Shown in pieces: positions 12,920-47,200 of a stretch of 52,101 nucleotides of DNA. The notes under the pieces are model-generated. The model was given only the letters and a program-made list of their open reading frames with translations. It did not search any database and was not told the origin of the DNA. Position 1 is the first letter of the stretch. Every line of letters begins with the position of its first letter. The DNA is from a bacterium (lineage in GTDB: Bacteria; UBP14; UBA6098), in contig JAGLDC010000019.1 in the NCBI GenBank assembly GCA_023145965.1, positions 1-52,101 of the forward strand, in the 5' to 3' direction. Made by a program: the position numbers and the translations under genes.

Positions 12920-13093
12920 GGGGGCGTCGGCCGTTGTGCCGATAGGCACAACGGAACAAGCAGGTCGCAAGGAATTTTGCTTCGATTTGACTATTTTAAA
13001 GCGACCTGCTTGTAAGCTTCTGCTCGAAAGGTCGAGGATATATTTTTGGGAGGAAAACTGTGCTCCTTTCGAGCAGGAGCTTACGACGTCCCC
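12920..13093. repeat. Four-stem cloverleaf palindromic element, copy 1
   Basis: All stems are read directly. Closing stem: GGGGGCGTCG (12920-12929) with CGACGTCCCC (13084-13093), 10 bp including one G-T. Hairpin 1: CCGTTGTGCC with GGCACAACGG (12931-12954), 10 bp, GATA loop. Hairpin 2: CAAGCAGGTCGC (12957-12968) with GCGACCTGCTTG (13001-13012), 12 bp perfect, 32-base loop. Hairpin 3: 13013-13031 with 13065-13083, 19 bp with one T-G, 33-base loop. Only three bases at the junction are unpaired. It lies between sppA and tRNA-Lys. A second element of identical layout is at 46112-46271. No ORF fits; it could be a structured RNA or a DNA element. Confidence 0.8.
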
Positions 13094-13176: not shown

Positions 13177-13249
13177 GAGGGTGTAGCTCAGTAGGTAGAG
13201 CACCGGCCTTTTAAGCCGGTTGTCGTGGGTTCGAAACCCCCCACCCTCA
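13177..13249 (+). tRNA. tRNA-Lys (anticodon TTT)
   Basis: Acceptor stem GAGGGTG/CACCCTC (7 bp, perfect), D-arm GCTC/GAGC, anticodon stem CCGGC/GCCGG around loop CTTTTAA with anticodon TTT at 13210-13212, five-base variable region, and T-loop TTCGAAA. The discriminator base is A and CCA is not encoded. The T-stem GTGGG/CCCCC has one T-C mismatch at its second pair. Confidence 0.95.
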
Positions 13250-41484: not shown

Positions 41485-44400
41485 ATGCGTAAGCACGCTA
41501 CAGCAATTATTTTAATGTTGCTCCTTGTTGGTGGTTTGTTAGCCCAGGGAGTCGCGATTACCCAACCCATCGACGGTCTCACCACGGCCGATGAAGACCA
41601 GCTTGTTTCTTATGTCTTCAGTGCGCCGGAGGATATCGACCAAGCTACGGTCGTATTGAGTGTCGATGGAACCGATTACACTATTGGTGCGGGCCTCGAA
41701 TGGACGATAGTCAACTTGATTTATGACATTGTCCCGGGAGTCTGGACTGAAGGTGTTCACACGCTTAGCCTTTCTGCTCTTGACTTGGTTGGTGACCCAG
41801 TTATTGGGACACCTTTAGAAACTGAGTTTAATGTCGATTTGTCCGCTCCTTATATGAGCGCGCGCACACCTGGCGTTATCGATGAGACAGAACCTATTCT
41901 TACAACCGATGTTTTGGAACCTATTTCAGTCACCATCACCGACGATTTTGGCGTTATAGATCCCGCCTCGATAGTCGTCGAGATTAAGGATATTCCTTAT
42001 ACTATGGCTTCTGTGGGTGTTACGCTCACTGCAGTCGATGGTGGTTATCTCTTTGAATTCGATCCCGCCACGGCTGGAATCGCTTGGGAAGAGAACGATT
42101 GGGTGACAGTCGAACTCATGGCAGCTCAGGATGCTCCTCATTATGGTGCTTCTAATGTTGCTGTTCCGGGGCCTGAATTCGGGTTCTTTGTCGATGCTGA
42201 TGGTCCTGAGTGCTTCCCAGTCGAGCCGATTCCTTTTGTCCGCGATATTATCTGGACGGGATGTTCTGACCTTCAGCTCACATGGCGCATTATCGATGAA
42301 AACGGTCTTGATCTTTCCTCATTCTACATCATGGTTAATGATGTAAGGTATAACTGGGGTAACTATCGTATGGTTGTGGATACTCTCGATTCATACGAAG
42401 TTTACACGGTTATCGATTCGGTTACGACTGATACAACCGAGATCGTTAATGAGGTTGTTTTCACATTCTCGCCGAACCCACAATGGTATGAAGGGGTTGT
42501 TTTTACAGTCTTTTCGCCGGTTATAAATGATATTTATGGCAATCCGGCTACCGATTGGGATTGGGGTGCATATTCGTGGACATCGTGGAAGCTTCGTTTC
42601 GATAACACCGGCCCGGCTATCTCGAACCCTGTTCCTGTTCCGAGCTATGTTACCAGAGACTTAGAAGAGTCGATCAGCTGGGATATGACCGATACATGGG
42701 GCGCTGTCGATCCTTCGACGGTTCACTTCATTATCGAGACATCTGGCGGCGAATATATTGAATACGATGCATGGAACGCCGTTACAACCAGAGAGATCAC
42801 TTATGATGGTTTAACGATGACCTATTATCCCAATATGGGCGGTATCGCCTGGTTACAGGGTGACACAATCACCGTAACCATCTGGGATGTTATGGATTCA
42901 ACGGAATTCTGTGATGCTAATCATCTTTCGCATCCTTCTTTCAGCTGGACTTTCTATGTTGCTGATGGTCCAATGGCTGACAATTTAATCCCGGGAGTTG
43001 CCGAGTTTACAAGTTGTCAAGCTCCTCAGATAAGTTTCGAACTTATTGATCCCGATGGAATTAACCCGACCTCGGTTCTTTTCCAGGTTGAGGATGTTAT
43101 CTTTGATGTTAATTACGACATAACCGTTATCGAAACTGTTGCGATTATTGGTGGTCATGTGATTACCGAAACGACTGAAGTATTCCCGTTCTATCAGGAT
43201 ATTTCGCTTCCTTCTCGCTTCCTTCTCGATATGGCGCTTGTTCCGCCGAGTTTGATTAATTTCACCGATGCCATGGAGGTTAACTGCACGATTCTCGAAG
43301 CTATGGATTGGCTTGCCAATCCGCTTTGGGGAGGTCCTCACAGCTGGCGTTTCTGGGTGGATTACTCTGGTCCGTTCGCGGGCTCGACAATGCCCGCCGA
43401 TGGTGGTATCGCTGGTGGCCCGTATCCGGTTTTCTCTATCGATGTTTTGGATGCGGTTTGCGGGATGGTAGATCCTAACGGCGTGAGCGTTCAGCTTCGC
43501 GGTGTTAACTTTAATCCGCTTATCGATCCCGGTGTTTTCTGGGAAGATATTTTTGGTGGTGGAAGAATCACAATCGATACTGAGATCGAAGGTTTCTACT
43601 ACGATCATGGTTCTGTTGTTAATGTTTGTCTCAACGAGGCATACGATAATCCAAATCACCGTTGTGGGATTTGGGGCAACATTGCTCTCGATCTTCCCTA
43701 CTGCTGGAGCTTCACTGTCGATAATCATGTTCCGGCTGTTGAAGTCGTCGAGCCTCTCAATATGACAGTATCGGCTTGTCCAATGCAGCCAATCGTTATC
43801 GAAATCACCGATGATTATGGCGTCGATCCTACAATGTTTAGAATGACAGTTAACCATGTAGTTATCGACTGGGGCGACCCAAGACTCACTTGGGATGGAA
43901 CTTACCTTTCATTTACACCGACTGAGGATTATCCTGAGGGTTTGGTTACCTGGGCTCTTAACAGGCTTTCCGATGTTGCTGGTAATATAGACGATGAAAC
44001 GCCGCTTTCCGGTGGATTCTATGCGGACTACACCGCTCCTGCCATTACTTTGACCGATCCGCTCGATGGCAGCACAGCTATCGTTGTGCCTGAGTTCCTA
44101 AAGATCGGAACCGATGATATGGCTGGACTCGATCCGCTGTTCACGCAGTTTGTTATAGATGTTTACACCGATGAAACTACCTTCGTCACATATATAGTAG
44201 ATGAAGCGACCTTCCCCGGCGTGTTCATCTGGGATGCCGACTTAAATGAGCTTTGGCTCGATATGGCGGTTGCCGGTATTACATTTGATTTCGAGGTATA
44301 TCGTGTTATGGTTAGCATTGCTACTGCAGATGCTCCTGAATATGCTTGCCCCGATCCGAATATTCTTGGCCTCTATCAATATGAGTTCTTCGTGAATCCA

Positions 44401-45954
44401 GGTTGGATGGTCGATCTTGAATATTGGTGTGACGAATCGACTATGGTGGATGTTTATGGATTCGGTGCTTTCTTTGGTGGAACCGAAGAATACGACGCTG
44501 GTCTCGATGAGCTACTTCCGCCGTTCCCACCGACCGAGACGCCGCTTTCGTTCTTAACTCCAGGCGCTGGAACTCCGCTCAGGCAAGACTATCTTGGCCT
44601 GGACTCCGACACCTGGGAGTGGACTATGTATACTGGTTCTCAGAGTGGTTGTATTCACTGGGATCCCACTGCACTTCCAGCTCTCGGCAGCTTTGTTATC
44701 AACGGAACTGTTGACATGCTCGGAACCGGTGAATATTGCTTTGAACCTGGCGAGGTTATTCTAATAAATGTGACTCGTCGTGTGATGATGGTAGCTGGAG
44801 GCTGGAATTTGATTTCAGTTCCGGTTGCGCCAGTTGACCCGAGTATCGAGGCTGTTTTCCCGATGGTAAACCCTGCTGATATTTGGGAATACACAGGCGG
44901 AACACCGCCTTATGTTCATCCGGCTATAGTTCATCCGGGACGTGCTTATATGGTTCTTTATACACCTGGCCCTGAAGACCCGGATCCCTGTTATTTCACG
45001 GTTCCCGGGATTCCTATTACCGAATATACTGTCGATCTGATAAAGGGTTGGAACACTATTGGTAGTGTTTATGACTTCGGTGGAGTTTCATTCCTCGATC
45101 CTGATGACACACCTGATGGTAGCTGTGAGCCGATCGTTTACTATCTCGATCCGGCAGCAGGTTCTTATGCCTTCTCCGATGTTATTGTTGCTGGGATGGG
45201 CTATTGGAATCTCGTCGATCCTCCGGCTCCTTTCTTAACCTGTGAGCTTACTGTTTCCGCGAGCTATGCCCGTGGCGCGAAAGCTCTACCTGGTTTCGAA
45301 GGCGAACCTGAGTGGACAACCACGATGAATTTCGCTGGTGATGCGGTTCGTGAAATAACCATCGGTGGGCATGCCGAGGCTACCGCCGAATACGAACGCG
45401 GTCTCGATATACCGATACCGCCGGCCCTTCCGGGTGCCACATTCGATGTCTATATTGAGGGAACCAAATATGGTCGCCTAATTAAGGACATTCGCAATAG
45501 CGACGGTTGGACGATCGTTGTGAATTCTCAGACACCGGTCGAGTTTACCTGGACAGGAAATGCTCCAGAGGGACTCATTCTAGAGGGAATGGGCCAAGAA
45601 ATCGACCTTAACGTCGATGGAAGAGCGATTCTCGATCCAGGCACTTACACAGCGAAACGTCGTGTTGAAGTTCCGAGCGATTATGCACTTAAGGGCGCAG
45701 CTCCGAACCCATTCAATGCTGCTTGTGGCATAACATTCGACATTCCGAGTGATTCAAAAGTGACACTCGAAGTGTTCGATATGATGGGACGCAAGATAAG
45801 CACCGTTGCCGATGGCGATTTCGCTCCGGGCACACACCGTGTTATCTGGAACGGAAACGACGATTATGATCGTGAAGTTTCCAGTGGAGTCTATTTCTAT
45901 AGAATGAATGCTGGAGATTTTAAAGCATCTGGCAGAATGGTTCTTATTCGCTAA
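41485..45954 (+). CDS. Giant secreted Ig-like-repeat protein with sorting domain
   Basis: 1489 residues with signal peptide 1-20 (LLLVGGLLAQ). Residues about 21-980 are successive Ig-like modules of 110-150 residues, recognisable by repeated 'D..GP' starts, 'I.D..GVDP.S..' centres and 'W.F.VD' ends. A beta-rich stretch follows. Then come a GWNLISVPV module near 1105 and a related KGWNTIGSVYDFG near 1190, as in the 1808-residue protein. The sorting domain (about 1400-1489) has APNPFNAACGITFD and ends SGRMVLIR. Cysteines are scattered but not patterned. It probably forms a surface fibre or adhesin. It has its own promoter and terminator. A short tandem 11-base repeat at 43204-43228 lies within it. 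Confidence 0.85.
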   Translation: MRKHATAIILMLLLVGGLLAQGVAITQPIDGLTTADEDQLVSYVFSAPEDIDQATVVLSVDGTDYTIGAGLEWTIVNLIYDIVPGVWTEGVHTLSLSALDLVGDPVIGTPLETEFNVDLSAPYMSARTPGVIDETEPILTTDVLEPISVTITDDFGVIDPASIVVEIKDIPYTMASVGVTLTAVDGGYLFEFDPATAGIAWEENDWVTVELMAAQDAPHYGASNVAVPGPEFGFFVDADGPECFPVEPIPFVRDIIWTGCSDLQLTWRIIDENGLDLSSFYIMVNDVRYNWGNYRMVVDTLDSYEVYTVIDSVTTDTTEIVNEVVFTFSPNPQWYEGVVFTVFSPVINDIYGNPATDWDWGAYSWTSWKLRFDNTGPAISNPVPVPSYVTRDLEESISWDMTDTWGAVDPSTVHFIIETSGGEYIEYDAWNAVTTREITYDGLTMTYYPNMGGIAWLQGDTITVTIWDVMDSTEFCDANHLSHPSFSWTFYVADGPMADNLIPGVAEFTSCQAPQISFELIDPDGINPTSVLFQVEDVIFDVNYDITVIETVAIIGGHVITETTEVFPFYQDISLPSRFLLDMALVPPSLINFTDAMEVNCTILEAMDWLANPLWGGPHSWRFWVDYSGPFAGSTMPADGGIAGGPYPVFSIDVLDAVCGMVDPNGVSVQLRGVNFNPLIDPGVFWEDIFGGGRITIDTEIEGFYYDHGSVVNVCLNEAYDNPNHRCGIWGNIALDLPYCWSFTVDNHVPAVEVVEPLNMTVSACPMQPIVIEITDDYGVDPTMFRMTVNHVVIDWGDPRLTWDGTYLSFTPTEDYPEGLVTWALNRLSDVAGNIDDETPLSGGFYADYTAPAITLTDPLDGSTAIVVPEFLKIGTDDMAGLDPLFTQFVIDVYTDETTFVTYIVDEATFPGVFIWDADLNELWLDMAVAGITFDFEVYRVMVSIATADAPEYACPDPNILGLYQYEFFVNPGWMVDLEYWCDESTMVDVYGFGAFFGGTEEYDAGLDELLPPFPPTETPLSFLTPGAGTPLRQDYLGLDSDTWEWTMYTGSQSGCIHWDPTALPALGSFVINGTVDMLGTGEYCFEPGEVILINVTRRVMMVAGGWNLISVPVAPVDPSIEAVFPMVNPADIWEYTGGTPPYVHPAIVHPGRAYMVLYTPGPEDPDPCYFTVPGIPITEYTVDLIKGWNTIGSVYDFGGVSFLDPDDTPDGSCEPIVYYLDPAAGSYAFSDVIVAGMGYWNLVDPPAPFLTCELTVSASYARGAKALPGFEGEPEWTTTMNFAGDAVREITIGGHAEATAEYERGLDIPIPPALPGATFDVYIEGTKYGRLIKDIRNSDGWTIVVNSQTPVEFTWTGNAPEGLILEGMGQEIDLNVDGRAILDPGTYTAKRRVEVPSDYALKGAAPNPFNAACGITFDIPSDSKVTLEVFDMMGRKISTVADGDFAPGTHRVIWNGNDDYDREVSSGVYFYRMNAGDFKASGRMVLIR
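43204..43228 (+). repeat. Tandem 11-base repeat inside CDS
   Basis: TCGCTTCCTTC occurs twice back to back, followed by a partial third copy TCG. The unit is not a multiple of three, so a slip would break the frame of the 1489-residue gene. Confidence 0.6.
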
Positions 45955-46111: not shown

Positions 46112-46271
46112 GGGGGGTGTCGAGCGTTGCACATAAATGGGCAACGAAGCGGCAGGCCGGAGGAAAATAATGGTTTGTAAGCCAATTTATTCCGGCCTCC
46201 GGCCTGACGCTAATTCTATGGGTCTTTGGAAAACGAGCTTTCCAAAGACCCATAGAATATCGACGCCTCCC
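46112..46271. repeat. Four-stem cloverleaf palindromic element, copy 2
   Basis: Closing stem: GGGGGGTGTCGA (46112-46123) with TCGACGCCTCCC (46260-46271), 12 bp with two wobbles. Hairpin 1: CGTTGC/GCAACG (46125-46146), 6 bp, 10-base loop. Hairpin 2: 46148-46163 with 46196-46211, 16 bp with one mismatch and a 32-base loop. Hairpin 3: 46213-46232 with 46239-46258, 20 bp perfect, loop ACGAGC. The order, the single unpaired G before hairpin 1, the 32-base second loop and the ends (GGGGG.GTCG / CGACG) repeat those of 12920-13093. The stem sequences are unrelated. No ORF fits. Confidence 0.8.
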
Positions 46272-46351: not shown

Positions 46352-47200
46352 TTAGAAATGATCGTAATCCTCGACTTCTTGATAAGCCGCTTGGAAATAA
46401 ATACCTCTGTCTGGATAGGCTCCACCGACAAAATTCACAAAATAAAACTTTGTGTAGTGGCTACCAATTTTAATTGCAAATGTAGTTCCAGGTTGTGTAA
46501 GGGTCTGAGATCTTGCCGTGCCAATAGTTCCAGAAGATCCGAAAGACGAAAGACCGGCGGTGGCTATACCAAGGCGTTTGACAGAAGCCTCCCTAGTAGC
46601 CCATTCAGTCCCGAAAAGGGAGGGAGATTTAAGCGTAAGATAATTAGAATCGTCAACACCGAGGTAGAGATCGATAAATGTTAAATAGGCAAGGTTCATA
46701 GGATAAACGACCTGAGCATCGAAATCGACGGAGGAGAAAGCGCTATCGCCTCCGGTGGATTCCCAAAGTGTGTCAGAAAACCAAATGGTTGGTGAAGTAT
46801 CTACAGTATTTGAATTAGAAGATAGCGTCGTATCATCGCCTTCGATCTTGATAGAACGGGCAGTAAAATAGTGTTTGCTTACACTACTCAAACCGGAAAT
46901 AACGATTTCTGTGTTGTTGACGATAATACCCATATAGTGCGTTTCCATCTCTTCAGATGTAAGACCTGAAAAATCGGCATTAACACGATGGTAAATTTTG
47001 TATCCTGTGAATCCGGTTTCACCTTCATCGGGCGAAGGATTCCAGGTGAGCTTAACTGAATCTTGATAGGTAACATAAACCATACCAGTAGGCGGATCGA
47101 AAACCTCTGGTTCAGGCTCCGGGTCGGTGGATTTTTCACATCCAAATACAACAAGCATAATTATCGCACAAAACGATAATAGAAATAAAGTTTTTCTCAT
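46352..47200 (-). CDS. Fibronectin type III-like lipoprotein
   Basis: 282 residues. Signal peptide with a good lipobox (MLVVFGC, Cys about residue 21), followed by a charged linker (EKSTDPEPEPEVFDPP). Residues about 38-130 form a fibronectin type III-like domain (DSVKLTWNPSPDEGETGFTGYKIYHR, SVSKHYFTARSI). The remaining 150 residues are beta-rich with no recognised family. It is probably anchored in a membrane facing the periplasm or surface. AGGAGG precedes the ATG and a promoter is visible upstream. The neighbouring gene at 47313 has a related FN3-like start, suggesting an old duplication or a shared surface role. Function unknown. Confidence 0.8.
   Translation of the reverse strand: MRKTLFLLSFCAIIMLVVFGCEKSTDPEPEPEVFDPPTGMVYVTYQDSVKLTWNPSPDEGETGFTGYKIYHRVNADFSGLTSEEMETHYMGIIVNNTEIVISGLSSVSKHYFTARSIKIEGDDTTLSSNSNTVDTSPTIWFSDTLWESTGGDSAFSSVDFDAQVVYPMNLAYLTFIDLYLGVDDSNYLTLKSPSLFGTEWATREASVKRLGIATAGLSSFGSSGTIGTARSQTLTQPGTTFAIKIGSHYTKFYFVNFVGGAYPDRGIYFQAAYQEVEDYDHF

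What the first reader, a model, noticed from the sequence alone, without database searches (positions are those of the whole stretch)
46112..46271. Second cloverleaf with the same layout but unrelated stem sequences
This element repeats the order closing stem, short hairpin, hairpin with a 32-base loop, long hairpin, and even the single unpaired G before hairpin 1. Only the outermost bases (GGGGG.GTCG and CGACG.C) are alike; the paired arms differ entirely yet remain complementary. Conserved architecture with compensatory sequence change suggests selection or a propagation mechanism acting on structure. Hairpin 3 is a perfect 20-bp stem, a potential SbcCD substrate; sbcCD is encoded at 24.4-28.6 kb.
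Basis: partly seen in the sequence, partly recalled or inferred. Interest (0 to 1): 0.8.

Follow-up and report, generated by a model that had tools for sequence, protein, structure and literature searches.

The report
Family of DNA cloverleaf repeats
The 160-base cloverleaf is one of at least 24 scattered copies in this bacterium of a short repeat that keeps its end sequence and its folded shape while the paired arms change; in a sister genus the same cloverleaf sits in frame inside the tail domain of secreted proteins, so it looks like a new, unusually elaborate relative of known mobile palindromic repeats.

Summary
46112-46271 folds into a closing stem plus three hairpins (DNA MFE -59.1 against -20.8 for shuffles, z -13); 12920-13093 has the same layout. 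The would-be refutation failed: the genome holds at least 24 copies (covariance model, E<1e-8), with more in two congeners (at least 37 and 16) and at least 14 in a sister genus; none was found in 17 more distant relatives. All share the ends GGGGCGTCGG...CCGACGCCCC, while arms are species- or copy-specific yet complementary; covariation beats every shuffle in three alignments. Orientation to genes is random and G-U does not exceed A-C, so the selected structure is probably DNA, not RNA. The H2 loop keeps ~32 nt with little sequence conservation. In the sister genus the cloverleaf lies in frame inside type IX secretion sorting domains (arms 82-87% identical, flanking coding DNA 55-63%). Closest known kinds: CGTC-tagged REP head-to-head dimers, REPINs and Rickettsia palindromic elements; strict CGTC-REP rules are not met. 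Best reading: a vertically kept, non-autonomous DNA repeat propagated in trans, perhaps by the resident IS200-like Y1 transposase (inferred). IS110 bridge-RNA, loop-as-guide, palindromic-target and RNA readings tested negative.

The parts
46112..46271 (+). cloverleaf copy 2 (the finding), locus L052/L015
   Evidence: fold z -13.3; CM score 116.9 bits, E 5.5e-25
46112..46123 (+). closing stem, left arm GGGGGGTGTCGA (end repeat)
   Evidence: family consensus GGGGGGCGTCGG
46260..46271 (+). closing stem, right arm TCGACGCCTCCC
46125..46146 (+). hairpin H1 (CGTTGC..GCAACG)
46148..46211 (+). hairpin H2, GC-rich stem with 32-nt loop 46164-46195
   Evidence: loop length about 32 nt and an ATY motif at position 7 from each end across copies
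46213..46258 (+). hairpin H3, perfect 20-bp stem, 6-nt loop
12920..13093 (+). cloverleaf copy 1, L013/L068, with a 33-nt loop in H3 as well
   Evidence: fold z -11.2; CM score 69.0 bits, E 2.2e-13
46352..47200 (-). neighbouring gene (282 aa, no family match) whose orthologues in G002 and G001 also have a cloverleaf just downstream of the gene's terminator
41485..45954 (+). convergent neighbour, secreted protein with type IX (Por_Secre/FlgD_ig) C-terminal domain, no insertion in its own domain

Best explanation
It is one copy of a family of non-autonomous, structure-defined interspersed DNA repeats. Each unit is a pair of inverted CGTC-bearing ends (GGGGCGTCGG...CCGACGCCCC), each leading into its own hairpin (H1, H3), with a structured spacer (H2 with an approximately 32-nt loop) between them, so that single-stranded or cruciform DNA forms a four-way cloverleaf. 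It works like a REPIN or CGTC-REP head-to-head dimer. A trans-acting enzyme reads the end sequence plus hairpins in single-stranded DNA, copies or moves the unit, and so keeps arms species-typical and complementary. Insertions survive in intergenic space, mostly near gene ends, and in one tolerated coding context, the presumed surface turns of type IX sorting domains. Shown: the family, ends, structure, covariation, distribution, orientation-independence and in-frame copies. Inferred: mobility in trans, and the mobiliser (the resident IS200-like Y1 transposase, whose neighbour gene is shared with G002 and G003, is the best candidate but unproven). Selection on a cellular function of the cloverleaf is not excluded.
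For: Family and ends. Structure: 69 of 73 copies give exactly three branches. Covariation: 8 own copies 37 two-sided cells against 12.0 shuffled; 16 G001 copies 50 against 16.5, 98.1% paired, no paired cell changed on one side only; 13 in-frame G003 copies 40 against 10.0; 0/500 shuffles in each. DNA rather than RNA: orientation to flanking genes about even (23 same, 25 opposite) with divergent, tandem and convergent contexts; G.U not in excess of A.C (92 against 105 on the canonical strand; 58 against 93 on the gene-sense strand). Copying as a unit: in G003 the element is 82-87% identical between genes whose adjoining coding DNA is 55-63% identical. Y1_Tnp gene in 1-2 copies in G000-G004, beside the same hydrolase gene in G000, G002 and G003. 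Literature parallels: REPIN spacers conserved in length and hairpin capacity with common compensatory changes (PMC3116915); CGTC REPs mostly head-to-head dimers, with structured spacers, intragenic units and no known transposase (PMC3733652).
Against: No empty site, excision product or recent identical copy was seen; no target-site duplication beyond chance. The Y1 genes are not flanked by the element and occur in class members that lack it. Copies sit beside the same genes in two or three species, which also fits an old, functionally kept element. Arms at orthologous sites are no more alike than at random sites, which needs either independent insertion or within-genome homogenisation.
Confidence: 0.6

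Rival explanations
1. Old, vertically inherited DNA element with a cellular role (nucleoid, gyrase or repair-protein binding, replication restart), its structure kept by selection and its arms co-evolving with a binding protein in each species.
For: Orthologous placement: the same gene borders a copy in G000, G002 and G001 for the finding's element, and about five further loci are shared between two species. End sequence is constant while arms are species-typical. Both strands fold.
Against: Found only in two genera of one family. Some copies decayed (C73 in G003 has stops in the reading frame; L071 and L070 lost an end or arms). In-frame copies inside proteins are hard to explain by a chromosomal role. 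Arms are no closer at orthologous sites than elsewhere.
Confidence: 0.22
2. Structured RNA element (3' UTR stabiliser, terminator or regulator) read from flanking transcripts.
For: Many G002 copies start 4-45 nt after a stop codon; very stable as RNA.
Against: Orientation to genes is even and some copies lie between divergent genes; no G.U excess over A.C on the canonical or gene-sense strand; no Rfam match in the window; in-frame copies inside ORFs.
Confidence: 0.08
3. Guide-bearing element: the variable 32-nt loop is a targeting sequence as in IS110 bridge RNA or another loop-guided system.
For: Loop of constant length and low sequence conservation (44-47% mean identity) between conserved arms.
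Against: Loop is not more similar to its own flanks than to other copies' flanks, direct or reverse complement; no IS110-type transposase in the four genomes that carry the element.
Confidence: 0.04
4. Mutational artefact: quasi-palindrome correction by template switching makes the arms perfect without selection or mobility.
For: Two-sided changes almost without one-sided intermediates in G001.
Against: Does not explain 73 dispersed units with the same ends, three branches and constant loop length, nor spread through coding domains. It may contribute to arm homogeneity.
Confidence: 0.06

Closest known systems
CGTC-tagged REP repeats, head-to-head dimers (Di Nocera et al. 2013, PMC3733652; includes Rickettsia RPE-4/RPE-6 and Neisseria dRS3)
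   Same: CGTC at both outer ends (62 of 73 copies at both, variants CATC and TGTC), inverted hairpin pair, heterodimer, structured spacer, intergenic plus intragenic copies, no flanking transposase gene
   Different: CGTC lies in a 10-13 bp closing stem with a G run; H1/H3 stems are often longer than 8-9 bp, no AT at stem start, no CCA tail; a third hairpin with ~32-nt loop is constant; fixed cloverleaf of roughly 125-180 bp
REPIN / RAYT (Bertels and Rainey 2011, PMC3116915)
   Same: inverted doublet with spacer constrained in length and pairing, compensatory changes, single-copy Y1 transposase gene in the genome
   Different: no GTAG tag, four-way junction rather than one long hairpin, Y1 gene not flanked by the element and of IS200-like (Y-x3-Q) type
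Rickettsia palindromic elements (RPE) in ORFs
   Same: in-frame palindromic repeats inside proteins at tolerated positions
   Different: here the in-frame copies seen are confined to the type IX sorting domain, wrapped around its KIFDINGR strand, across many paralogues
MITEs
   Same: 70-300 bp, terminal inverted repeats, no coding capacity
   Different: no target-site duplication and no parent transposon found; three-hairpin core under covariation
IS110 bridge RNA elements
   Same: structured element with internal loops of variable sequence
   Different: no IS110 transposase in these genomes, loops do not match flanks

Membership tests
CGTC-tagged REP | CGTC (or TGTC/CCTC) tag at one end of the unit | tested here: met
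   62 of 73 copies have CGTC at both ends; variants CATC, TGTC
CGTC-tagged REP | stem 8-9 bp starting with A-T pairs, loop 4-5 nt | tested here: not met
   H1 stems 5-18 bp, H3 up to ~20 bp, no CGTCAT in any copy
CGTC-tagged REP | unpaired tag and CCA tail | tested here: not met
   the tag pairs in the closing stem; no CCA tail seen
CGTC-tagged REP | head-to-head dimers with spacer of about 20-100 bp | tested here: met
   inverted ends with the H2 hairpin between H1 and H3
REPIN/RAYT | two inverted REPs forming a hairpin structure with a length-constrained spacer | tested here: met
REPIN/RAYT | GTAG tag | tested here: not met
REPIN/RAYT | RAYT gene flanked by the repeats | tested here: not met
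REPIN/RAYT | Y1 tyrosine transposase acting on the repeat | not testable with these tools
   gene present, activity unknown
MITE | terminal inverted repeats, no ORF of its own | tested here: met
   the G003 copies are read through as part of host ORFs
MITE | target-site duplication | tested here: not met
   direct flank similarity z 1.4, -1.5, 1.4 in three genomes
IS110 bridge RNA | IS110 transposase in the host | tested here: not met
Rfam structured RNA | match to a curated RNA family | tested here: not met
   only a tRNA in the window

The most novel reading that the evidence does not exclude
A DNA cloverleaf that spreads by an undescribed route in which the arms are replaced or homogenised as a set across the genome while the ~32-nt loop belongs to the locus: the two half-units are laid down on either side of a short host segment, which becomes the H2 loop. 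The G003, G002 and (in a partial copy) own-genome coding copies, where the loop is the host protein's own KIFDINGRLVADL strand in register, would be the clearest instances.
Probability: 0.12. Interest if true: 0.88.

Novelty: new variant of a known kind. Interest (0 to 1): 0.62.

Why it matters
It extends palindromic repeats (REP, REPIN, RPE) to a fixed four-way DNA junction in a little-studied candidate phylum, with four species-specific arm sets to compare against a constant end sequence. CGTC repeats have no known transposase (PMC3733652); a small family in genomes with a single Y1 gene makes that question testable. The in-frame copies in sorting domains show a non-coding DNA repeat shaping a protein domain across paralogues while still covarying as DNA.

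Tried and rejected
Direct DNA similarity in relatives: none. IS110 driver: absent. Loop as guide to flanks: no signal. Palindromic target site or target-site duplication: no signal beyond chance; slight outward extension of the closing stem only. Flanking elements at Y1 genes: none. Loop homology at orthologous loci: suggestive only (sum p 0.058). RNA reading: no strand asymmetry. Literature search for a bacterial cloverleaf MITE found nothing matching.

Full report
Observation. The element at 46112-46271 folds as described into a closing stem and three hairpins with a 32-nt loop in the second and a perfect 20-bp third stem; MFE is 13 standard deviations below dinucleotide shuffles and the other strand folds equally. 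The first copy at 12920-13093 has the same order.

Genome-wide family. A gapped end pattern gives 18 matches in the own genome against 3 for the reversed control, resolving to about ten distinct copies. A covariance model built from eight of them finds 24 copies at E<1e-8 in G000 plus weaker ones, dozens in congener G002 (37 analysed), about ten in congener G001 (16 aligned after adding genome-collection copies), and two in sister genus G003; none in the other 17 relatives. A second model from G003 adds more copies in G001, G002 and G003, still none in G004 or the rest.

Anatomy. Of 73 copies, 69 give exactly three branches. The closing stem GGGGCGTCGG/CCGACGCCCC is the most conserved part within each species (mean identity 0.76-0.92), arms and hairpins 0.49-0.78, the H2 loop 0.44-0.47. 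Arms are species-typical: H1 CCGCGCATGCGCGG in many G002 copies, H2 GCGAAGTAGTCGG and H3 CTGCGATTT in G001, the H3 apex GGAAAGCTnGCTTTCC in G000 and G002. Loop length clusters at 32-34 nt, with an ATY motif starting at position 7 from a loop end in 39 of 134 cases against 3% per position elsewhere. A second G002 sub-type and copy 1 of the window carry a long loop in H3 too.

Covariation. Two-sided changes exceed all 500 shuffles in own copies, G001 and the in-frame G003 copies. In G001 no paired cell has a change on one side only, and G.U intermediates are nearly absent. These counts follow shared descent and are not independent events.

DNA or RNA. Element orientation relative to genes is even (23 same, 25 opposite), contexts are divergent, tandem and convergent, and G.U pairs do not exceed A.C pairs on the canonical or gene-sense strand. 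Nothing in Rfam matches. This favours a DNA-level structure.

Position history. The gene at 46352-47200 has orthologues in G002 and G001 with a cloverleaf just past the gene's terminator, and about five other positions are shared between two species. Arms at these shared sites are no more alike than at random sites; loops are slightly more alike in the same gene orientation (p 0.058). Either the same intergenic spots are hit repeatedly or arms are homogenised within genomes; this is unresolved.

Coding copies. In G003 at least 14 cloverleaves lie in frame inside type IX (Por_Secre) C-terminal domains, wrapping H2 around the strand LKIFDINGRLVADL. Element parts are 82-87% identical between paralogues whose adjoining coding DNA is 55-63% identical, and the H3 loop is 57%. 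G002 has two similar copies (L302, L305) and G000 a partial one at C36:1417-1561. Element-free paralogues in G003 carry other in-frame hairpin repeats at the same two turns.

Mechanism. Best supported: a non-autonomous, REPIN-like or CGTC-REP-dimer-like DNA repeat spread in trans. Literature features match in part: CGTC tag, head-to-head heterodimers, structured spacers, intragenic units, no transposase (PMC3733652); spacer length and pairing with compensatory changes (PMC3116915). A Y1 transposase gene (1-2 copies) exists in G000-G004, beside the same hydrolase gene in G000, G002 and G003, but it is not flanked by the element and occurs in genomes without it, so its role is inferred. IS110 is absent. 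Loop-to-flank guide matching, palindromic targets and target-site duplications are not supported.

Membership. It fails the strict CGTC-REP rules on stem length, AT start, unpaired tag and CCA tail, and fails GTAG and gene-flanking rules for REPIN/RAYT, so it is filed as a new variant that works like these, not as a member.

Noticed in passing
L267, L268, L270, L273, L274, L276 (G003): Element-free type IX sorting domains in G003 carry other in-frame palindromic repeats at the same two turns, e.g. GTAGGGGCGGG...CCCCTACG multi-hairpin units and a CGTCATTGCGAG-type CGTC repeat (ARRAQPNEAIS).
   Followed up: partly
L318:1417-1561 (G000:C36): Own genome has a sorting-domain gene with a partial in-frame cloverleaf (GGCGTCGGCGCGAGC hairpin) followed by two unrelated hairpins.
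   Followed up: partly
G000:C80:26769-27101 (L246:3713-4114): Single-copy IS200-like Y1 transposase gene; the nearby metal-dependent hydrolase gene also neighbours the Y1 gene in G002 and G003.
   Followed up: partly
G002 L086, L088, L094, L100, L101, L303, L304, L306, L307: Second sub-type with H1 mostly CCGACCGAAGGTCGG and long loops in both H2 and H3; resembles window copy 1 in having two long loops.
   Followed up: no
L083:2075-3547 (G002:C16:62974-64446): Two similar cloverleaves lie one on each side of a 377-aa ORF; possible duplicated segment useful for dating arm change.
   Followed up: no
window 13177-13249: A tRNA gene lies 83 nt downstream of cloverleaf copy 1.
   Followed up: no
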